The translations under genes and the position numbers were made by a program. DNA of 40,041 bases, taken from the IMG/VR virus record IMGVR_UViG_3300027743_000055, positions 1 to 40,041 of that record. One strand, given 5' to 3'. Within the stretch, counting starts at the first letter, position 1, and each line of letters begins with the position of its first letter. Shown in pieces: positions 3,552-21,656 of this stretch. The notes below the pieces were generated by a model, which was given only the letters and a program-made list of their open reading frames with translations, was not told the DNA's origin and made no database searches. This DNA is from a virus.

Positions 3552-3827
3552 TTACTCTTTGAAGCAGACCGTGAACGGGCGACTGACCTGATGCTTTGCG
3601 ACCACGTAGATGTAATCGGGACCACAACCCGAATCAAAGCACTGCGATTCCGCGGCCCTGATCCAGCCGGCCAGCTGCTCTCGGGCTCGCACCCGAAACG
3701 GCAACTCGGCCAGGTACATAAGGCCGAAAACTACTTCAATCCAGCCGGCGTCTGGGCTTTCGACAGAATCCCGTCTATCTATAGAGAAGCATTCGTCGGC
3801 GTCCTGACCTCTGTAGCGGTATGACAA
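3552..3827 (-). CDS. Hypothetical protein diverging from the integrase, 91 aa
   Basis: Strip 3426-3820 has open frames on both strands. The leftward one reads more like a protein (GWIEVVFGLMYLAELPFRV, then EQLAGWIRAAESQCFD, then YIYVVAKHQVSRPF) than the rightward one at 3489-3824, which has the composition of an antisense shadow. The start is uncertain: TTG at 3827 is chosen, with TTG 3860 as alternative. The 5' end overlaps the integrase start and the direct repeats at 3821-3864, so divergent control is possible. No family is recognised; an excisionase-like role would suit the position but no HTH is seen. Confidence 0.4.
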   Translation of the reverse strand: MSYRYRGQDADECFSIDRRDSVESPDAGWIEVVFGLMYLAELPFRVRAREQLAGWIRAAESQCFDSGCGPDYIYVVAKHQVSRPFTVCFKE

Positions 3828-3864
3828 ACAAGAATGACAAACAAAACGGCGGAATAACAAACAA
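3821..3864. repeat. Three direct repeats over the integrase start codon
   Basis: The 11-mers atgacaaacaa (3821-3831), atgacaaacaa (3834-3844) and ataacaaacaa (3854-3864) cover the first codons of the integrase gene and encode repeated T-N-K. Spacing is 13 and 20 bases. Such phased repeats at this place are candidates for regulator operators or integrase arm-type sites. A related aaacaaaac occurs in the inverted repeat after the gene (4715-4738). Confidence 0.5.
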
Positions 3865-4708
3865 ACGCGGGCGCTCTCAGTTGTGGGATGCGCTTATAGC
3901 CCAGTGGCTGCATAGCAGGGGCGAGGGTACGAAGGGTACGTACGGCATCACGATGGCCGACTTTCGGGCCTTCATCAAGGACCGCCCGATACAGCGCTGC
4001 GACCTGAAGTTGCTCCAGGATTATGTAGACACCATCAAGAAGATGCCGCGTACGATCGCACGCCAGGTGGCGACGATCCGCTCCGTCTTCAAGTTCGCGG
4101 AGGAGATGGGCCTGATCAAGTACAACCCTGCTCGAGCGCTACGCGCCCCGAAAGTACCGAACCAGTTAGCGGAGAAGATTCTCGAGGCGAAGCAGATTCG
4201 CTCCATGATCAGCAAGGAACCTAATAAGCGGAATCAGGTGCTGTTGAGGGTACTCTATGCGGCCGGGATCAGAGCCTCGGAAGCCGCAGATCTATGCTGG
4301 GGAGCCGTACAGCCTCGGGTAGACAAGGGCGGTCAGATCACGGTGGTCGGGAAGGGCTCGAAGTCGCGGACCATCCTGCTTTCGCTCAAGACCTGGCAGG
4401 CGTTGTTGTCGGTGAAGCCTGCGAAATGCGACCCGAAACTTCCGGTATTTGTGTCTCGCGAGGGGGAAAAGGAACCGCTGCGCCGAACGACAATCAGCAA
4501 TATTGTGAGATTTGCCGCCGAACGGGCCGGAATAGATCGCAAGGTATCGGCTCACTGGATGCGCCACGGCCACGCATCACACGCGCTGGATAATGGCGTC
4601 CCTTTGTCGGTTATTTCCCATACTTTAGGACACTCTAATATCTCGACAACCCACGCATATTTACACGTCAGACCAGACCAAAGCTCTGCCACAAGTCTCG
4701 GTGTATAA
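3821..4708 (+). CDS. int: Tyrosine recombinase (phage integrase), 295 aa
   Basis: The core-binding SAM-like domain covers about residues 20-105 (TMADFRAFIKDRPIQRC, then ARQVATIRSVFKFAEEMG). The catalytic domain shows the full active site: R151 in LYAAGIRASEAADL, K178/K181 in VVGKGSKSRTI, H245 and R248 in SAHWMRHGHASHAL, H271 in LGHSNISTTHAYLH, and Y280 as nucleophile. Length is typical of XerC/D-like and small phage integrases. It would insert the phage into, or excise it from, a host attachment site, or resolve multimers. It reads toward the terminase genes. The ATG overlaps direct repeats that may regulate it. Confidence 0.93.
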   Translation: MTNKNDKQNGGITNKRGRSQLWDALIAQWLHSRGEGTKGTYGITMADFRAFIKDRPIQRCDLKLLQDYVDTIKKMPRTIARQVATIRSVFKFAEEMGLIKYNPARALRAPKVPNQLAEKILEAKQIRSMISKEPNKRNQVLLRVLYAAGIRASEAADLCWGAVQPRVDKGGQITVVGKGSKSRTILLSLKTWQALLSVKPAKCDPKLPVFVSREGEKEPLRRTTISNIVRFAAERAGIDRKVSAHWMRHGHASHALDNGVPLSVISHTLGHSNISTTHAYLHVRPDQSSATSLGV

Positions 4709-4828: not shown

Positions 4829-5407
4829 GTGACTGCAACTAAAAAAAGGGAAAACTACCCCGGCAAGCGGGCTAAGACCAGCATTTTCAAGAAGAAGCGG
4901 TTCCTCGAGGAGTTCGCCAAGTGCGCGAATCTCTCGACGGCAGCGAAAATAGCCGGCGTCGATCGCAACATTCACTACAAGTGGCTGGAGGACCCGGAGT
5001 ACGTCGCGGCGTTCGACATAGCCCACAAGGAAGCCTGCGATGCGATCGACCAGGAGATCTACCGGCGAGGCGCGAAGGGGTTCCTCGAGCCGGTCTTCTA
5101 CCAGGGCAAGAAGGTATCTGACGTACGCCGGTATGACTCTACGTTGTTGATTTTCTTCGCCAAAGGGCTGATGCCCGATAAGTACCGCGAGAACTTCAAG
5201 GGCGATATTAACCTGAAGGCCGACGTAACCGCCAACCACAACCTGGACCTAACACGCCTTACAAATGAACAGCTTGAGGCCCTCGACGCCCTCTATACCG
5301 CGGCCGTTGCCGCCGACGGAAGAGCAGCGGAAAGCATTCCTGAACGAACTGTTGAAGGAAAAGCAGAGGAGACAGCGGAACCGGATAGCGGACTACTTCC
5401 AGAGTAG
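4829..5407 (+). CDS. terS: Terminase small subunit, 192 aa
   Basis: The N-terminal HTH has the usual TerS pattern, LSTAAKIAGVDRNIHYKWL. It is followed by the helix DPEYVAAFDIAHKEACDAID, the family feature GFLEPVFYQGKKVSDVRRYD, and LLIFFAKGLMPDKYREN. The C-terminal third is acidic and probably contacts TerL. The subunit forms a ring that recognises the packaging site and hands DNA to the large subunit. The start is GTG at 4829, because the nearby ATG (4827) runs straight into a stop. The gene overlaps terL by about 140 bases in another frame, as is common in this phage group. Confidence 0.85.
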   Translation: MTATKKRENYPGKRAKTSIFKKKRFLEEFAKCANLSTAAKIAGVDRNIHYKWLEDPEYVAAFDIAHKEACDAIDQEIYRRGAKGFLEPVFYQGKKVSDVRRYDSTLLIFFAKGLMPDKYRENFKGDINLKADVTANHNLDLTRLTNEQLEALDALYTAAVAADGRAAESIPERTVEGKAEETAEPDSGLLPE

Positions 5408-6056
5408 CGGTCCATTCCGCAGGGAACTGTATCCAAAGCACTTGCAGTTCTTTGCGGCGGGCGGGCAGCATAAGCCGATGCCCCCGGACTGCCCAGCCGA
5501 CTGCGATGGCTCATCTCACCGTGAACGCTGTTTCATGGCAGCGAACAGAATCGGGAAGACTACAGCGGGCGCGTATGAGATGACGTGCCATCTCACCGGG
5601 AATTATCCTCACTGGTGGGTAGGGAAGCGTTTTGATCGTGCGATCCGGGCGTGGGCTTGTGGTCAGTCGAACAAGACAGTCCGCGAAATCATACAGCGGG
5701 AGTTGCTAGGGCCGGTGAACGCCATGGGTCAGGGTATGATCCCCGGCGACCTGATAACACACCGGACGACAAAGCAGGGCATAGCCGAAGCCACGGATAC
5801 CATCTATGTGAGGCATGCCTCGGGCGGCACATCGTCGGTACAACTCAAGAGCTACGAGGAAGGGCAAGCCAGCTACTTCGGAGCAGCTATCGATCTGGGG
5901 TGGGCGGACGAGGAACCGCCGACCCCTATCTGGACGGAAATGCTCGTTCGTACAATGTCTACTAACGGCCTGTGTTATCTGACCTTTACCCCGCTTCAGG
6001 GTCTGAGTGAAGTGGTGTTGAGTTTCCTCCCGAATGGGATAGTCTCAGGCGGCTAG
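5265..6056 (+). CDS. terL: Terminase large subunit, N-terminal (ATPase) half
   Basis: This is the packaging motor ATPase. The Walker A-like P-loop is MAANRIGKTTAGAYEM (K98), the Walker B region is AIDLGWADEEPP (about 208-219, catalytic Glu), and the coupling motif is YLTFTPLQGLSEVV (238-251). The reading frame then ends after FLPNG plus five foreign residues at TAG 6054-6056, because an antisense HNH gene is inserted. The nuclease domain continues in a separate frame at 7121. All ATPase motifs are intact, so the fragment could fold alone. Whether the two halves assemble into a working motor, or terL is dead in this isolate, cannot be told here. Confidence 0.88.
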   Translation: MNSLRPSTPSIPRPLPPTEEQRKAFLNELLKEKQRRQRNRIADYFQSSGPFRRELYPKHLQFFAAGGQHKPMPPDCPADCDGSSHRERCFMAANRIGKTTAGAYEMTCHLTGNYPHWWVGKRFDRAIRAWACGQSNKTVREIIQRELLGPVNAMGQGMIPGDLITHRTTKQGIAEATDTIYVRHASGGTSSVQLKSYEEGQASYFGAAIDLGWADEEPPTPIWTEMLVRTMSTNGLCYLTFTPLQGLSEVVLSFLPNGIVSGG

Positions 6057-7120
6057 TTTCGCGGCGCGTTTTGCCAGCCATACGAGTAAAGGCATCTTGT
6101 TTTTAGAACTGTTGTTCTCAAGCGATGTAACGCAAAAATTGGCAGATTCGTTTGTGCCTCCTGACGATAAAGGCACGATGTGATCGATTGTGGGCTTCTC
6201 TATCAATTCAGAGGAATAGACGTCCCAGTACATATCCCCTACTCTGTACGATTCGAGGACTTCTTCGATCGATTCGCGGACGTGCTTGAGACGTTTGTCG
6301 CAGCCCATGGAAATCTTCTTGTAGATAGCAGCTATGTAGCGCTTGCGCATGATTTCAGGGTTCGCATCCCGGAAGGCTTTGTTTCGTAAGCGGATCTTGT
6401 CTTTATTCTTTTGATAGTAGGCCGCTCTGTATTCTTTGCTTCGTGGTGTGTACCGACCCTCCTTTTTTAGTTTCTTTGTGTAGGCGCGATTCGCAGCCCG
6501 CGCTTCTTCAGTCGTTCGGGCCTGACTTTGACATTCCTTACAGGGACTAGTTAGGCCCCGACGGCCACTCGCATACGTCACAATGGCGAACTCAGTGGCA
6601 GACTTAAGAGTTTTACATTTACGGCAGGTCTTAGGCCTTTCAAGTCCATGTGGTTCGTGTGGAGTTGGCTGGTAATATTTCTTCTGCCAAGTCCTGTCGC
6701 ACGGTTTGCAGCGGCTGGCTACTTTGCGGCTTTTATTACCCGTTTCGGTCTTATAGTTTCGTACGGAAAACTCAGATATGTCTTTGGTCTGGTTGCAAGA
6801 GATACATAGCTTACTGACCGGGAGGACAGGCACATGAGTGACGCCTCTGGGACCTTTAGGTCTCCCGATCTTCTTTGGCGGTAGTCCAATGCGTCCAAGC
6901 TTGTATTGTTCCCTGTCACACACTATGCATGGCTGTTCCAGTTTCTGGCTGTAATTTCCGCCGCAAGTGGTGTACTTCCGAAGATAGAACGCTGATCTAT
7001 GCTTTACTTCTTTGCAGCGTGAGCACTGCTTCTCAGTTGGAATGTTAGGTACGAGAGTCTTTCCAGGCAATGTGCTTGCAGCGTAACAACATGGCGTTAG
7101 TACGCGGGCTATAGAACTAA
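6041..7120. mobile_element. HNH homing-endonuclease insertion inside terL
   Basis: About 1.08 kb separates the last terL-like codon of the ATPase half (near 6040) from the first of the nuclease half (7121). It is almost filled by one antisense endonuclease gene and is visibly richer in A and T than the terL flanks. Only about 50 bases lie outside that gene on the right and a few on the left. That leaves no room for a group I intron core, and an intein is excluded by orientation. It is best seen as a freestanding homing gene that cut into terL between the ATPase and nuclease domains. Exact borders are uncertain. Confidence 0.7.
6045..7070 (-). CDS. Zinc-finger HNH homing endonuclease, 341 aa
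   Basis: At least six CxxC motifs in tandem make up the first two thirds: CSRCKEVKHRSAFY, CIVCDREQ, CISCNQTKDISEF, CKPCDRTWQKKYY, CRKCKTLKSATEF and CKECQSQ. This is a repeated short finger that probably reads DNA. A basic AAYYQKNKDKIRLRNK-type helix follows. The C-terminal nuclease has the HNH core: IDHIVPLSSGGTNESANF, then LENNSSKNKM. The start is TTG at 7070, as no in-frame ATG lies upstream. Orientation is opposite to terL, base composition is more AT-rich than the phage, and the stop lies within a few bases of the terL break. Together these mark it as recently acquired mobile DNA. Confidence 0.85.
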   Translation of the reverse strand: MPGKTLVPNIPTEKQCSRCKEVKHRSAFYLRKYTTCGGNYSQKLEQPCIVCDREQYKLGRIGLPPKKIGRPKGPRGVTHVPVLPVSKLCISCNQTKDISEFSVRNYKTETGNKSRKVASRCKPCDRTWQKKYYQPTPHEPHGLERPKTCRKCKTLKSATEFAIVTYASGRRGLTSPCKECQSQARTTEEARAANRAYTKKLKKEGRYTPRSKEYRAAYYQKNKDKIRLRNKAFRDANPEIMRKRYIAAIYKKISMGCDKRLKHVRESIEEVLESYRVGDMYWDVYSSELIEKPTIDHIVPLSSGGTNESANFCVTSLENNSSKNKMPLLVWLAKRAAKLAA

Positions 7121-7855
7121 ATGTCCAAATTTATCTGTCAGGCCAGTTGGAACGATTGCGCCCACCTGACTGAAGAAGCCAAGAAGGATCTATACGACTC
7201 GCTACCTCCATACCAGCGTGACGCCAGGTCTAAGGGCATCCCAGTATTAGGGGCTGGAGCCATCTATCCAGTTCCAGAATCGGACGTGGTCGTACCTGAC
7301 ACCGAGATTCCGGACCACTGGCCCCGCTGCTTTGGTTACGATGTCGGCTGGCGCGTAAGTGCAGCCTGCTGGGGGGCGTTGAACCGAGACACCGACACCC
7401 TATATATCTACGCGGAGCACTATCGAGGAGAAGCAGAGCCAGTCGTTCACGCCGAAGCCATCAAGGCGCGAGGCTCGTGGATCAGAGGAGCGATAGATCC
7501 GGCAGCTCGGGGCCGCGGCCAGATCGATGGCAGAAACCTGCTGGATATGTACCGCGACCTGGGTCTAGATTTGGTTCCGGCCCAGAATGCAACAGAGTCG
7601 GGTATCTACGAAATTCTAACGCGGTTGTCCTCCGGCAGACTTAAAATCTTTCGGTCCTGCCAGAACTTCTTGGGTGAGTTTAGACTGTACCGCAGAGATG
7701 AGAAGGGCAAGATTTGTAAGGAAAGGGATCATCTCATGGACGCATGCAGATATATGATCTCTTGCTTGCACGAGATCCTATCCACCAAGCCGGCCCCGAA
7801 GAAGCAGAAGCCGGTAGAAGAAAGGCGATTTGGCGCGACGGGTTGGATGGGATAA
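7121..7855 (+). CDS. terL: Terminase large subunit, C-terminal (nuclease) half
   Basis: This continues the large terminase. SKFICQASWNDCAHLTEEAK and PPYQRDARSKGIPVLGAGAI are the linker features of P22/T7-like TerL proteins. The RNase-H-type nuclease follows: FGYDVGW (D74), GAIDPAARGRGQIDG (D126), and ERDHLMDACRYMI (D203/D207), so all metal-binding acids are present. It begins with its own ATG at 7121, preceded directly by an in-frame TAA and without a good ribosome site. Expression as a separate domain would therefore be weak. Its stop is three bases before the first unit of the 36-bp repeat array, in the same direction. Confidence 0.85.
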   Translation: MSKFICQASWNDCAHLTEEAKKDLYDSLPPYQRDARSKGIPVLGAGAIYPVPESDVVVPDTEIPDHWPRCFGYDVGWRVSAACWGALNRDTDTLYIYAEHYRGEAEPVVHAEAIKARGSWIRGAIDPAARGRGQIDGRNLLDMYRDLGLDLVPAQNATESGIYEILTRLSSGRLKIFRSCQNFLGEFRLYRRDEKGKICKERDHLMDACRYMISCLHEILSTKPAPKKQKPVEERRFGATGWMG

Positions 7856-7858
7856 ACT

Positions 7859-8463
7859 GAGCGAGCCGTGCTTTGGGAGAGAACCGAGAATAACGAGCGA
7901 GCCGCGCCCGACGAGAGTACCGAGGTGGATGAGCGAGCCGCGTGCGCCGAGAGCACCGAAGCAAAAGAGCGAGCCGAATTGCCGGAGAGTACCGATGTTT
8001 TGGAGCGAGCCGTTTCCCCTGAGAGTACCGAAATACGGGAGCGAGCCAGTGCGCCGGAGAGTACCGACATGCCGGAGCGAGCCGTGCAACGAGAGAGCAC
8101 CGGACTAATCGAGCGAGCCGTGACACGAGAGAGTGCCGACATAATGGAGCGAGCCGTATTATCAGAGAGTACCGGATTAGGTGAGCGAGCCATCCAGCGG
8201 GAGAGTACCGTCCTTTGCGGAGCGAGCCGGATTCGCAGAGAGAACCGGAACAACTGAGCGAGCCGCGCTTGTCGAGAGTACCGTGCTGTGGGAGCGAGCC
8301 GCGCCGATGGAGAGTACCGTGAAAGATGAGCGAGCCGCATCCTGTGAGAGTACCGTCGTGAGTGAGCGAGCCGTCATGGTCGAGAGAACCGGAAACACCG
8401 AGCGAGCCGCGTGCGCCGAGAGCACCGAAACAACCGAGCGAGCCGAATTATGAGAGAGTACCG
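7859..8463 (+). repeat. TIGR-like array: 17 units of 36 bp, two alternating repeats with variable octamer spacers
   Basis: Each unit is gagcgagccg - 8 variable bases - gagagtaccg - 8 variable bases. The first decamer is perfect in 15 of 17 copies (two end in a). The second is exact in 10; the others change base 6 or 7. Spacer pairs in order: tgctttgg/agaataac; cgcccgac/aggtggat; cgtgcgcc/aagcaaaa; aattgccg/atgttttg; tttcccct/aaatacgg; gtgcgccg/acatgccg; tgcaacga/gactaatc; tgacacga/acataatg; tattatca/gattaggt; tccagcgg/tcctttgcg; gattcgca/gaacaact; cgcttgtc/tgctgtgg; cgccgatg/tgaaagat; catcctgt/tcgtgagt; tcatggtc/gaaacacc; cgtgcgcc/aaacaacc; aattatga/taaagggt. The period of 36 and two spacers per unit match TIGR arrays, whose 36-nt RNAs guide Tas proteins. 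One spacer has nine bases (8211-8219), which breaks every reading frame. Confidence 0.88.
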
Positions 8464-8483: not shown

Positions 8484-9287
8484 GTGAGCACAAATATCGA
8501 GGCTGTCCAAAAACTGTCGCGGGACCTTCGCGCCGCCGCCAAGCTGATGGGTGTGCGCGAGGCCCGTTATTTTGTGGATACGTATTACGACTTACAGGAT
8601 TACAGGATCGCAGCCGCCAACCAGCAGCGCAAACTGCTCGAGGGTGAGGAGCCTTCTGAATTCATCACCTGGCTCAACGGGCAGCTGGTGGTGCTCGAGG
8701 GGCAGATCAAAGCCGTGCTCGACAAGTGGAGCGCCGCGCAGCCGATGGGCGAGTGGAGCCGGAATATCGTCGGGATCGGCCCAGTCATCGCATCAGGATT
8801 GATTGCCAACATCGACATTACAAAAGCGCCGACCGTAGGGCATATCTGGCGGTTCGCCGGCCTGGATCCTACCTGTAAATGGGAGAAGGGCCAGAAGCGG
8901 CCCTGGAACGCTTCGCTGAAACGGCTGTGTTGGCTGATGGGCGAGTCGTTCGTCAAGGTGAGCGGCAACCCCAATGACGTGTACGGCAAACTCTACCTGG
9001 AACGAAAGGCTTACGAGCAGAAGCGCAACGATAACGGCGATCTGGCGGCAACCGCGGCCGAAAGGCTGAAGCAGGCGAAGCAGAAGAAATTGGATGCCGG
9101 CCTGATCGAACTGTTCGAATCCGGCCGGTTACCGGCAATGGCGCTGCACGAACGGGCCAAACGGTGGTCAGTGAAAGTATTTCTTTCACACTGGCATGCT
9201 GAAGCATTCAGACAGCACTATGGGACGGAGCCACCTTTCCCCTATCCCATCGCCCATCTCGGCCACGCGCATCTCATCAAACCATAA
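8484..9287 (+). CDS. tas: Tas-like protein: Nop / IS110 C-terminal (Transposase_20-like) domain without nuclease, 267 aa
   Basis: A helical N-terminal half includes a coiled-coil segment (about residues 35-90: QQRKLLEGEEPSEFITWL, then QLVVLEGQIKAVLDKW). The helix-hairpin-helix core is NIVGIGPVIASGLIANID (94-111), then IWRFAGLDPTCKWEKG (121-136), then a basic helix-rich C-terminus (HERAKRWSVKVFLSHWHAEA, 222-241). This is the pattern of the IS110 C-terminal domain and, structurally, of Nop domains of box C/D RNPs. There is no RuvC DEDD or HNH motif. With the array directly upstream it fits a Nop-only Tas that binds array RNAs. GTG 8484 is the chosen start, with aagggtgag from the last repeat as possible ribosome site. 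An orphan IS110-type fragment is the alternative. Confidence 0.82.
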   Translation: MSTNIEAVQKLSRDLRAAAKLMGVREARYFVDTYYDLQDYRIAAANQQRKLLEGEEPSEFITWLNGQLVVLEGQIKAVLDKWSAAQPMGEWSRNIVGIGPVIASGLIANIDITKAPTVGHIWRFAGLDPTCKWEKGQKRPWNASLKRLCWLMGESFVKVSGNPNDVYGKLYLERKAYEQKRNDNGDLAATAAERLKQAKQKKLDAGLIELFESGRLPAMALHERAKRWSVKVFLSHWHAEAFRQHYGTEPPFPYPIAHLGHAHLIKP

Positions 9288-15113: not shown

Positions 15114-17219
15114 ATGGCAACTTACGCAAGCGCCACAGCCGACAGCGTAACCAGGAAAGCTGTACCTAAGAAGGACGAAGAAGACTACCTGGCGGAAGCG
15201 AACAGCCGGTTCCAGCTATGCGTGGATTCGGAATCGACAGTGCGCCGTGAGATGTTAAGCGATTTGTCCTTTTACGATGGAGAGCAATGGGAAGCCAATA
15301 TCAAGTCCAGTAGGCAACTTGACCACAGGCCTTGCTTAACGATCAACCGCTTACCGGGACTGGTACATCAGGTAAGCAACACCATCCGCCAGCAGAAGCC
15401 CAGCCCGAAGGTATCGCCGGTCGATGAGACGGGAGATGTTAAGACCGCGGATATCTTCAAGGGACTCATCCGGCATATCGAGAGACAGAGTAAGGCCGAC
15501 ACCGTCCGGAGCTACGCTTCCATCTACGCCATCATTGCCGGCCGCGGCTTCTACCGCATCACCACACGCTACATTGATGACCTGAGTTTCGATCAAGAAA
15601 TCTACATCACCAGGATCAAAAACCCATTCACTGTCTATTTCGATCCTGGCGCCCAAGAACCGGACTACTCGGACGCGCAGTACTGCTTTGTAGTGACAGA
15701 TCTGACGGACGATCAGTTCGAGTCACGCTTCCCCGGCAAGCCTCTCTCGAGCGCTGAGAACTTCCGGTCCAACGGCGACGGACTGCCCATGTGGAGATGG
15801 GAAGGCGGCGTACGAATCGCGGAGTACTTCAGCCGGCATATCGAGGAGAAGACAGTGTGCCTGCTGGAAGACGGCTCGACCATGTACCTCGAGGACGTAC
15901 CCTCGGGGGCGCAGGTGATACGACGGCGTCAGACAGAGAAAGTAGTCGTGAAGTGGTGCATCATCGACGGGGCGCAGATCTTAGAAGAGAAGCCGTGGGC
16001 GGGGAAGTACATCCCGGTTATCCCGGTATTGGGCGAAGAGTACGACATTGACGGCAAGACACAACTTCTGGGGATGGTGCGCAACGCCAAAGACCCGCAG
16101 AGGATGCTCAACTACTGGGAATCCTGCAAGACGGAGACGATCGCGCTGGCGCCACGCGCACCGTACTTAGTAGCCGAAGGACAGACGGAGAATCATGAAG
16201 GCGAATGGGCGCAGGCCAACACCCGGAACTATCCCTACCTCGTCTATAAGCCCAGAGCGGTAGGCCAGGAGCTTGTACCTCCGCCGCATAGGGAAGTGTA
16301 CGAGCCGCCGATCCAGGCGATCAGCCTCGCGCAGGCGCAAGCGGTAGACCACCTGAAAAGCACCACAGGCGTATACGACGCCAGCTTAGGCAACCGATCC
16401 AACGAGACAACCGGCGTAGCGATACAAGCACGGCAGATGCAGGGCGACACCGGCAACTACCATTTCATCGACAACTTGGGAACCTCGATCACACATGAGG
16501 CCAGAATCCTGGTCGATCTAATCCCGAAGATCTACGACAGGCCCGGAAGAGTAGCACGCATCATTGGCGAGGACGGTAGCGAACGGCAGGTCACATTGAA
16601 CCAGGAGTTCGACGACGGTGGACAGGCCGGCATTTACGATCTGAACGCCGGCCGCTACGACGTGGTTGCCGATATCGGGCCCAGCTTTGCGACACGCAAG
16701 GAAGAGAGCGTACAAGGCATGCTCGGCTTCGCGCAGGTTGCGCCCGAATTGGTTCCCAGATACGCAGACCTATTAGTCCAAGGGCAGGACTGGCCGCTTG
16801 CCGATGAGATAGCCGATCGCGTCCGTCCTCCGGACATACCGCCGAAGAACCAGACGCCATTACCGCCGCAAGCGCAGGCCGCTATCAGCCAACTCAATCA
16901 GCAGAACCAGCAATTGCAGCAGGCATTAGCCGAAGCGACGGATATGCTGAAGACCCAGAAGTTGCAGTTGGACGTGCAGGAAAGAATGCAACTGAGAGAC
17001 CTGGAAGCGAAGGCGCAACTGGCTCAGATGAAGATCGAGAGCGACGTGATGCGGGATGCCGGCAAGATACGGTCGGACTTAACGCAAACCGATCAGAAGA
17101 TCGACAGCCAGGAATCGATAGCGCAGTTGAACGCTGAAACGAAGGTAACGACGGAAGAGATGAAGTTGGCGGCTAAGGCGAAGGAACGTCCTCCTCTCGA
17201 CTCATTCTTCGAAGACTAG
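15114..17219 (+). CDS. Portal protein, P22 gp1-like, 701 aa
   Basis: The P22-type portal layout is clear: an N-terminal segment with YLAEANSRFQLCVDSESTVR and DLSFYDGEQW, then the core LTINRLPGLVHQVSNTIRQQ, the crown/wing region, and LLGMVRNAKDPQRMLNYWES. A long Gln-rich coiled-coil C-terminus follows (AISQLNQQNQQLQQALAEAT to the end), equivalent to the barrel helix. Length near 700 matches P22 gp1. It forms the dodecameric ring through which TerL pumps DNA and to which the gp4-like adaptor binds. It directly follows 14852-15109 and abuts 17221-19278. Confidence 0.9.
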   Translation: MATYASATADSVTRKAVPKKDEEDYLAEANSRFQLCVDSESTVRREMLSDLSFYDGEQWEANIKSSRQLDHRPCLTINRLPGLVHQVSNTIRQQKPSPKVSPVDETGDVKTADIFKGLIRHIERQSKADTVRSYASIYAIIAGRGFYRITTRYIDDLSFDQEIYITRIKNPFTVYFDPGAQEPDYSDAQYCFVVTDLTDDQFESRFPGKPLSSAENFRSNGDGLPMWRWEGGVRIAEYFSRHIEEKTVCLLEDGSTMYLEDVPSGAQVIRRRQTEKVVVKWCIIDGAQILEEKPWAGKYIPVIPVLGEEYDIDGKTQLLGMVRNAKDPQRMLNYWESCKTETIALAPRAPYLVAEGQTENHEGEWAQANTRNYPYLVYKPRAVGQELVPPPHREVYEPPIQAISLAQAQAVDHLKSTTGVYDASLGNRSNETTGVAIQARQMQGDTGNYHFIDNLGTSITHEARILVDLIPKIYDRPGRVARIIGEDGSERQVTLNQEFDDGGQAGIYDLNAGRYDVVADIGPSFATRKEESVQGMLGFAQVAPELVPRYADLLVQGQDWPLADEIADRVRPPDIPPKNQTPLPPQAQAAISQLNQQNQQLQQALAEATDMLKTQKLQLDVQERMQLRDLEAKAQLAQMKIESDVMRDAGKIRSDLTQTDQKIDSQESIAQLNAETKVTTEEMKLAAKAKERPPLDSFFED

Positions 17220-20444: not shown

Positions 20445-21656
20445 TTGGCTAACAATACGCTCTTAACCATTAGTATGATCACCCGCGAAGCTGCGCGCAT
20501 ACTGACCAACAACCTCTGCTTCACCAAGCAGATCACCAGGGAATACCAAGATCAATTTGCCCGCAGTGGCGCAAAGATCGGATCTGTTTTAAACATCAGA
20601 AAACCACCCAAGTACATTGGGCGTACAGGCCGTGTCTGCTCCGTTGAAGACGTCGTTGAGACGTCAGTACCTCTCGCCTTGACGACGCAGTACGGCGTGG
20701 ACCTATCGTTCAGTTCCGCTGAACTCGCGCTGTCCATTGACGACTTCAGCGATCGCATCCTGAAGCCCGCAGTCGCCGTTGTCGCGAATAAGATCGATTA
20801 CGAAATGATGGGCCTGTACACAACCGTGCCGAACGTCGTAGGAACGCCTGGAACCGTGCCCAATGCTCTCCTCACCTATCTCATGGCTGGCGTGGCTTTG
20901 GATGACAATATGGCTCCTCGGGACGATCAACGGAAAGTGGTGGTTAACCCGATCCAGCAGGCCACGATCGTCGACGCGCTGAAGGGCTTGTTCCAAAGCG
21001 CAGACCAGATCGAGCGACAGTATGAAAAGGGCCTCATGGGCATCACCGCAGGATTCAAGTGGTGCATGGACCAAAATGTGAGGACACACACCGCAGGCCC
21101 GTACGGTGGCGCTCCGATCGTTGCCGGCGGCTCGCAAGTCGGCAGCACGCTCAACGTATCGGGATTCACCGCAGCCGCAGCGCTCAGATTACGTAAAGGT
21201 GATCTCTTCACGATCACTGGCGTAAATGCAGTGAACGGCCAGAATAGGCAGAACCTTGGTTACCTGCGTACCTTCACGGTAACTGCGGACGTGAACTCAC
21301 TTGCCGACGGCACCGCGGCAATCCCGATCTATCCGCCTATCACGCCTACTGGCGCAGCGCAGACGGTTACCGCAAGTCCAGCCGGTGGCGCACCGCTGAC
21401 GATGACCTTCACCGCAAATCAGGTCACCAACCAAGCCCTCGCATTCCATCGCGATGCGTTCACCTATGCTACGGCCGACTTACCCCTACCCGATGGCGTG
21501 GACATGGCTTCCCGCGTCAGCGATTCGCAACTGGGAGTCTCGGTACGTATGATTCGCCAATACACGATTTGTGACGACTTGTGGCCCACACGCCTAGACG
21601 TTCTCTGGGGCGGAGCAGCCGTCTACCCAGAGTTGGCCTGTAGGATTATCAGCTAA
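20445..21656 (+). CDS. Major capsid (coat) protein, P22 gp5 family, 403 aa
   Basis: MANNTLLTISMITREAARIL then FTKQITREYQDQFARSGAKI and SVLNIRKPPKYIGRTG is the typical N-arm and spine start of the P22 coat family (HK97 fold). VEDVVETSVPLALTTQYGVD and FSSAELALSIDDFSDRILKP follow. A Thr/Ala-rich insertion at about residues 235-330 matches the place of the P22 I-domain. The end, SDSQLGVSVRMIRQYTICDD, is the conserved P-domain strand. The start is TTG 20445, supported by a strong gggaggag ribosome site ending 6 bases upstream. Bases 20358-20444 hold no gene. Confidence 0.92.
   Translation: MANNTLLTISMITREAARILTNNLCFTKQITREYQDQFARSGAKIGSVLNIRKPPKYIGRTGRVCSVEDVVETSVPLALTTQYGVDLSFSSAELALSIDDFSDRILKPAVAVVANKIDYEMMGLYTTVPNVVGTPGTVPNALLTYLMAGVALDDNMAPRDDQRKVVVNPIQQATIVDALKGLFQSADQIERQYEKGLMGITAGFKWCMDQNVRTHTAGPYGGAPIVAGGSQVGSTLNVSGFTAAAALRLRKGDLFTITGVNAVNGQNRQNLGYLRTFTVTADVNSLADGTAAIPIYPPITPTGAAQTVTASPAGGAPLTMTFTANQVTNQALAFHRDAFTYATADLPLPDGVDMASRVSDSQLGVSVRMIRQYTICDDLWPTRLDVLWGGAAVYPELACRIIS

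What the first reader, a model, noticed from the sequence alone, without database searches (positions are those of the whole stretch)
5265..7855. Large terminase split exactly between ATPase and nuclease domains
All ATPase motifs (K98, DEE, LTFTP) are in 5265-6056 and all nuclease acids (D74, D126, D203) in 7121-7855, with an antisense HNH gene between. Both halves keep intact frames, so a functional two-piece packaging motor is conceivable; otherwise the phage is defective or the insertion is very recent.
Basis: partly seen in the sequence, partly recalled or inferred. Interest (0 to 1): 0.72.

Follow-up and report, generated by a model that had tools for sequence, protein, structure and literature searches.

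The report
Phage DNA-packaging motor encoded in two
The enzyme that pumps DNA into this virus is made from two separate genes instead of one, and close to half of the related viruses sampled are split at exactly the same spot, which suggests the split motor works and offers a natural test of how such motors are held together.

Summary
The split is real: terL-N (5265-6056, +), an antisense HNH gene (6045-7070, -) and terL-C (7121-7855, +), ATPase and nuclease motifs intact. It is neither a recent accident nor peculiar to this phage. Of 196 related loci (142 from IMG/VR and GenBank phages, 54 from bacterial genomes), 88 have terL broken in the same short loop. Of these, 37 have no insert, many with ATGA or TAATG stop-start junctions; 51 have 0.1-5.4 kb between the halves, carrying endonucleases but also unrelated genes. 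The nuclease half has its own start codon, and both halves are under purifying selection. No intron or split intein was found. Most likely this is a two-polypeptide packaging motor, with the HNH gene a later mobile passenger between its cistrons. That matters because cutting T4 gp17 at the hinge abolishes translocation (PMC3012670). Assembly and activity of the halves were not tested.

The parts
4829..5407 (+). terS, terminase small subunit
   Evidence: phrog_4044 terminase small subunit, 9.2e-25
5265..6056 (+). terL-N: ATPase core of the large terminase, Walker A K98, Walker B/catalytic D215 E216, motif III T242-P243; ends FLPNGIVSGG at TAG 6054-6056
   Evidence: Terminase_6N 8e-16; conserved residues; tail FLPNGIVSGG*
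6045..7070 (-). HNH / endonuclease VII-like gene lying antisense in the gap between the two terL cistrons; its 3' end overlaps the terL-N stop by 12 nt
   Evidence: phrog_1035 2.8e-19 and others, HNH-type residues DHIVPLSSGG...N...NK; lower GC 0.489
6040..7117 (.). inferred extent of the inserted DNA (ends not sharply definable; no flanking direct repeat of 8 nt or more)
   Evidence: comparison with the insert-free relative L035 and with L011/L015; GC
7121..7855 (+). terL-C: last ATPase-domain strand, lid subdomain, hinge and RNase H-like nuclease domain; own ATG preceded directly by an in-frame TAA
   Evidence: Terminase_6C 1.1e-11; model mean pLDDT 89.9 matches P22 gp2 nuclease Z 25.3, rmsd 2.0, 181 residues; upstream stop
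7121..7246 (+). codons 1-42 of terL-C: the part that belongs to the ATPase domain (strand KFICQASW plus lid helices)
   Evidence: solved nuclease domains align only from residue 43-46; equivalent strand 240-245 is formed in the intact model but is coil in the isolated C piece

Best explanation
This is a naturally split large terminase: two cistrons make two polypeptides that assemble without a covalent bond into one packaging motor subunit. terL-N is the ATPase core up to just after motif III. terL-C supplies the last ATPase strand, the lid, the hinge and the nuclease. I infer that the N-terminal strand of terL-C (KFICQASW) docks into the ATPase sheet of terL-N and re-forms the domain, so the lid-hinge-nuclease chain that must not be cut in T4 stays in one piece. 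The split was probably present before the HNH gene arrived; that gene is a mobile endonuclease that settled in the gap between the cistrons, where it does little harm. Shown here: the split, its recurrence at one site, the separate starts, conservation of both halves, and the position of the cut relative to solved structures. Inferred: non-covalent assembly, strand docking, motor activity, and the order of events in this phage.
For: (1) 60 of 142 non-redundant loci from IMG/VR and GenBank phages, and 28 of 54 from bacterial genomes, are split, always between N-profile positions 217-219 and C-profile positions 1-8; no locus has the N profile split over two frames. (2) 37 splits have no insert; the terL-C start lies exactly -1 nt (ATGA type) from the terL-N stop in 18 and -5 nt in 7; all three relative frames occur. 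(3) A start codon at the C-domain start in 57/60 split against 24/82 intact loci (ATG only 39/60 against 9/82, p 1e-11). (4) Shine-Dalgarno pairing before terL-C stronger than before internal ATGs (medians -5.2 for no-insert and -4.0 for insert splits, against -2.9; p 5e-5 and 7e-4). (5) Catalytic residues kept in the 60 splits: D215, E216, T242, P243, D74 in 60/60, K98 59/60, D203 58/60; dN well below dS in both halves where dS is not saturated. (6) A single terL-C-type match in each of 29 IMG/VR records and in one circular GenBank genome (MW202785.1), where both halves are already annotated 'large terminase protein'. (7) Cultured hosts with junction-overlapped splits include Kushneria aurantia DSM 21353, Vibrio galatheae, Neptunomonas marina and Endozoicomonas arenosclerae. 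(8) L035, a close relative, has the split with no insert (TAATG). (9) The endonuclease insert in L011/L015 is 85% identical in DNA while their terL is 61-65% identical.
Against: No protein, RNA or packaging data. The window's own terL-C has a weak Shine-Dalgarno-like sequence (-2.6, no better than controls), no sigma-70-like promoter was found in 5900-7300, and an antisense gene lies between the halves, so expression of terL-C here is unproven. In T4, gp17 cut at the hinge keeps ATPase and nuclease but loses translocation (PMC3012670), though that cut is at a different place. Strand docking rests on two predicted models, not on a complex. For the window the order 'split first, HNH later' rests on relatives whose tree branching is only partly supported. 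The bacterial-genome set was collected with terL-C patterns from near relatives of the window, so 52% is not an unbiased frequency.
Confidence: 0.8

Rival explanations
1. The HNH insertion itself broke an intact terL recently, and the phage is defective or on its way out.
For: The insert has lower GC than its flanks; the HNH and terL-N stop overlap; weak Shine-Dalgarno before terL-C.
Against: terL-C has a proper start directly at the domain start; closest relatives L011, L015 and L035 are all split at the same site and L035 has no insert; both halves keep catalytic residues with mostly third-position changes against L011; portal, coat and head-closure genes look whole.
Confidence: 0.1
2. The two halves are rejoined at RNA or protein level by an intron, a split intein or programmed frameshifting.
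For: terL genes in Jug phages are split by group I introns and spliced (PMC12363816); split inteins from TerL proteins (AceL-TerL, GOS-TerL) are known; probable in-frame inteins occur in two relatives.
Against: No Rfam match in the junction even at E 10 nor in 18 relatives at the gathering threshold; 37 splits have nothing to splice; the stop-to-start offsets use all three frames; terL-N has only a 4-20 residue tail in insert-free splits and the window's terL-C starts right after an in-frame stop, so no intein fragment fits; inserts carry unrelated genes in operon-style overlap.
Confidence: 0.06
3. Only one half is used: for instance a host or second phage terminase packages the DNA, and the other half has a different job.
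For: terL-C alone resembles separately folding nuclease domains.
Against: Both halves keep catalytic residues and low dN/dS; one terL-C-type match per genome in 30 records; in intact relatives the same two parts are one protein.
Confidence: 0.04

Closest known systems
Large terminase of P22-like headful phages (gp2; Terminase_6N + Terminase_6C)
   Same: ATPase motifs, nuclease acids and nuclease fold (4dkw Z 25.3); P22-type portal and coat genes in the same window
   Different: two cistrons and two polypeptides instead of one
Genes-in-pieces by homing endonuclease: Aeromonas phage Aeh1 nrdA/mobE, T4 gene 60/mobA, split gene 43 of phages 25 and 44RR (PMC2988022)
   Same: essential phage gene in two cistrons with a mobile endonuclease between; split nrdA and split polymerase are active; in phage 44RR the gene 43 split has an untranslated spacer instead of the endonuclease
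   Different: here a packaging motor, split repeatedly at one loop, with many splits that have no insert at all
Jug phage terL genes broken by group I introns (PMC12363816)
   Same: terL in pieces with endonucleases nearby
   Different: those are spliced back to one protein; no intron found here
Split inteins in TerL (AceL-TerL, GOS-TerL; PMC11766414)
   Same: a TerL made as two polypeptides
   Different: no intein fragments on either half here, so no trans-splicing expected
T4 gp17 cut at the hinge in the laboratory (PMC3012670, PMC9958956)
   Same: ATPase and nuclease parts on separate chains
   Different: cut at the hinge and inactive in translocation; the natural cut is about 42-55 residues upstream, leaving lid-hinge-nuclease continuous

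Membership tests
P22-like large terminase (TerL) | Walker A, Walker B/catalytic Glu and motif III in the N part | tested here: met
   K98, D215, E216, T242, P243 present and conserved
P22-like large terminase (TerL) | RNase H-like nuclease domain with conserved acids in the C part | tested here: met
   D74, D126, D203; model matches 4dkw Z 25.3, rmsd 2.0, 181 residues
P22-like large terminase (TerL) | one continuous polypeptide | tested here: not met
   two ORFs, 13-20 stops per + frame across 6000-7200
Homing-endonuclease-split functional gene (Aeh1 nrdA type) | endonuclease gene between two conserved halves of an essential gene | tested here: met
   HNH at 6045-7070 (-), both halves conserved
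Homing-endonuclease-split functional gene (Aeh1 nrdA type) | the endonuclease caused the split | tested here: inconclusive
   37 relatives are split with no insert, including L035; order of events in the window not proven
Homing-endonuclease-split functional gene (Aeh1 nrdA type) | the two products assemble into an active enzyme | not testable with these tools
   needs protein work
Intron-interrupted terL (group I/II) | intron RNA in the intervening DNA | tested here: not met
   no Rfam match at E 10 in 5900-7250; none at gathering threshold in 18 relatives; an undescribed intron type cannot be excluded for the window itself
Split-intein TerL (AceL-TerL type) | intein fragment (25-37 aa N, 104 aa or more C) on the halves | tested here: not met
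   terL-N tail after FLPNG is 5 residues; in-frame TAA directly before the terL-C ATG

The most novel reading that the evidence does not exclude
In a large, environmentally common group of P22-like phages and prophages the packaging ATPase domain is completed by strand donation from a second polypeptide. Covalent continuity between ATPase core and lid is then not needed for a viral DNA-packaging motor, this has evolved many times at one loop, and it lets ATPase and lid-nuclease modules reassort between phages.
Probability: 0.6. Interest if true: 0.85.

Novelty: new variant of a known kind. Interest (0 to 1): 0.76.

Why it matters
TerL is treated as a single-chain motor and as the standard phylogenetic marker of tailed phages. 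How force passes from ATPase to DNA is disputed: through the lid, or by pulling the nuclease domain via the hinge. Natural two-piece motors, cut between ATPase core and lid but never at the hinge in 88 of 88 cases, are an evolutionary experiment on that question and can be assayed directly. They also explain truncated terminase calls, and warn that incomplete TerLs in metagenomes need not be broken.

Tried and rejected
Intron search at permissive threshold in the junction and at gathering threshold in 18 split relatives: nothing. Promoters and terminators in 5900-7300: none. Direct repeats flanking the insert: none of 8 nt or more. DNA similarity of the window's HNH to the inserts of L011/L015: none; relatives in viral contigs: only two weak hits. 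Split as a metagenome assembly error: rejected because cultured-isolate genomes show it with exact stop-start overlaps. Single origin of the split: not supported; 23-25 changes by parsimony and at least 7-12 forced by well-supported branches on N, C and joint trees, but gain and loss cannot be told apart, and recombination between halves may inflate the joint count. Literature searches for a split or two-gene terminase found intron-split terL in Jug phages but no description of this arrangement.

Full report
Observation. The window carries terS (4829-5407), terL-N (5265-6056), an antisense endonuclease gene (6045-7070) and terL-C (7121-7855). The phage is P22-like: P22-type portal at 15114-17219 and P22-type coat at 20445-21656. 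It is a 40041-base virus record. All three + frames between the halves are full of stops (13, 20 and 15 in 6000-7200).

The split is not peculiar to this phage. Relatives of each half were fetched from viral contigs, GenBank phages and bacterial genomes, then classified by whether N and C profiles fall in one open frame. In 142 loci non-redundant at 95% (the window included), 60 are split. In the 54 classifiable bacterial-genome loci, 28 are split. Every split lies between N-profile positions 217-219 and C-profile positions 1-8, and no locus has the N profile broken over two frames. Random breaks or sequencing errors would not concentrate in one short loop.

Two kinds of split. Thirty-seven of 88 have no insert (up to 60 nt between domain ends). 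Their junctions are textbook cistron junctions: the start lies at -1 from the stop (ATGA type) in 18 and at -5 in 7; L035 and L168 have TAATG and L023 has TAA directly followed by ATG. All three relative frames occur, which speaks against one programmed frameshift. The other 51 have 110-5356 nt between the halves. Some inserts are endonucleases (endonuclease VII or HNH types in L007, L011, L038, L054), others are not: a Dam-type methyltransferase in L060, large non-endonuclease ORFs and small ORFs. In several cases the inserted gene itself starts with ATGA on the terL-N stop. Four Halomonadaceae prophages show the series well: Kushneria L220 has the bare ATGA junction, Halomonas L213 and Litchfieldella L221 have one small gene with ATGA at both ends, Chromohalobacter L219 has about 1.1 kb; terL-N tails and terL-C starts are nearly the same in all four.

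terL-C is a gene in its own right. A start codon at the C-domain start is present in 57/60 split but 24/82 intact loci (p 1e-16), and the Shine-Dalgarno-like sequence before it is stronger than before internal ATGs. The window's own is weak (-2.6). Catalytic residues are conserved in split members. dN is well below dS where dS can be measured (for example L001/L002 terL-C 0.06/0.51; L005/L006 0.17/0.94 and 0.23/0.98); against L011 the window shows 57% third-position but only 19-23% first/second-position differences in the two halves, with dS saturated. Each of 30 records examined, including the circular MW202785.1, has one terL-C-type match.

Where the cut is. AlphaFold models were made for the intact relative L003 (mean pLDDT 91.1) and for the window's terL-C (89.9). 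In L003 the solved ATPase domains of P74-26 and T4 gp17 align to residues within 12-286 (ends at 279-286) and the P22 nuclease domain to 279-464. The split loop is at ~226-239, between helix 220-225 and strand 240-245. In the window's terL-C, solved nuclease domains align only from residue 43-46 (P22 290, D6E 233, T4 360). The sequence profile agrees: position 226 aligns to D6E residue 193, while the D6E linker is 230-241 and its lid residues Y213, M216 and R224 lie in between. So terL-C carries the end of the ATPase domain, including the lid. The strand formed at 240-245 in L003 is coil with low confidence in the isolated terL-C, which suggests that its partner strand lies in terL-N. From this I infer strand docking as the way the halves hold together; no complex was modelled.

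Why it is interesting. T4 gp17 cut at the hinge keeps both enzyme activities but loses translocation (PMC3012670), and the hinge is described as essential (PMC9958956). The natural split avoids the hinge in all 88 cases and separates ATPase core from lid instead. If these motors work, covalent core-lid continuity is dispensable, while hinge continuity may not be.

The HNH gene. It has lower GC (0.489) than terL-N (0.577) and terL-C (0.55). Its 3' end supplies the terL-N stop codon and last residues. It shows no DNA similarity to the inserts of L011 and L015, which share with each other an endonuclease gene 85% identical over 922 bp although their terL DNA is only 61-65% identical: this is the signature of a mobile gene moving to the same junction. 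Since the close relative L035 is split with no insert, the simplest history is split first, endonuclease later. This order is likely but not proven for the window.

History of the split. Split and intact states change 23-25 times on N, C and joint trees (at least 10, 7 and 12 forced by well-supported branches), against about 46 in shuffled labels. Repeated fission, re-fusion, or both are therefore needed; direction cannot be told. N and C similarities are less correlated in split than in intact loci (Spearman 0.07 against 0.54; 0.26 against 0.59 without the P22-like subclade), a hint that split halves reassort, not corrected for sampling.

Known context. Split essential genes with endonucleases are known in T4-like phages and some are active (PMC2988022). 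Intron-split terL (PMC12363816), TerL inteins (PMC7156551) and TerL split inteins (PMC11766414) are known; each was considered here and does not fit. No paper describing two-cistron TerL without splicing was found in the open-access library; subscription journals were not searchable.

Noticed in passing
L213:5771-6001, L221:5744-6001, L106:2245-2463, L177:2632-2838, L089:1928-2119: A conserved small protein (64-86 aa, 32-57% identical to L221's copy) sits between the terL halves in five lineages, with no Pfam or PHROG match in the three copies scanned; a candidate third packaging protein.
   Followed up: partly
window 7877-8463: Imperfect tandem array of 36/72-base units (GAGAGTACCG... / GAGCGAGCCG...) directly after terL-C, with long overlapping ORFs on both strands.
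   Followed up: no
window 5265-5407: terS and terL-N ORFs overlap by 143 bases if the ATG at 5265 is the true start; similarity to L011 begins at residue 6, inside the overlap.
   Followed up: no
L006:1506-3233 and L026:1903-4377: In-frame LAGLIDADG homing-endonuclease domains (with Hint matches in L026) inside the ATPase half, i.e. probable inteins; L006 is in addition split at the usual loop.
   Followed up: partly
L055, L141, L005 (terL loci): N and C halves have different nearest relatives (L055 N is 65% identical to L141 but C only 44%, while its C is 66% identical to L005), suggesting exchange of modules at the split.
   Followed up: partly
window 8484-9287: Transposase-like ORF (phrog_4285, 1.3e-42; Pfam Transposase_20 below cut-off) between terL-C and the tail genes.
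   Followed up: no
window 3821-4708: Tyrosine integrase directly before terS, so the phage is probably temperate.
   Followed up: no
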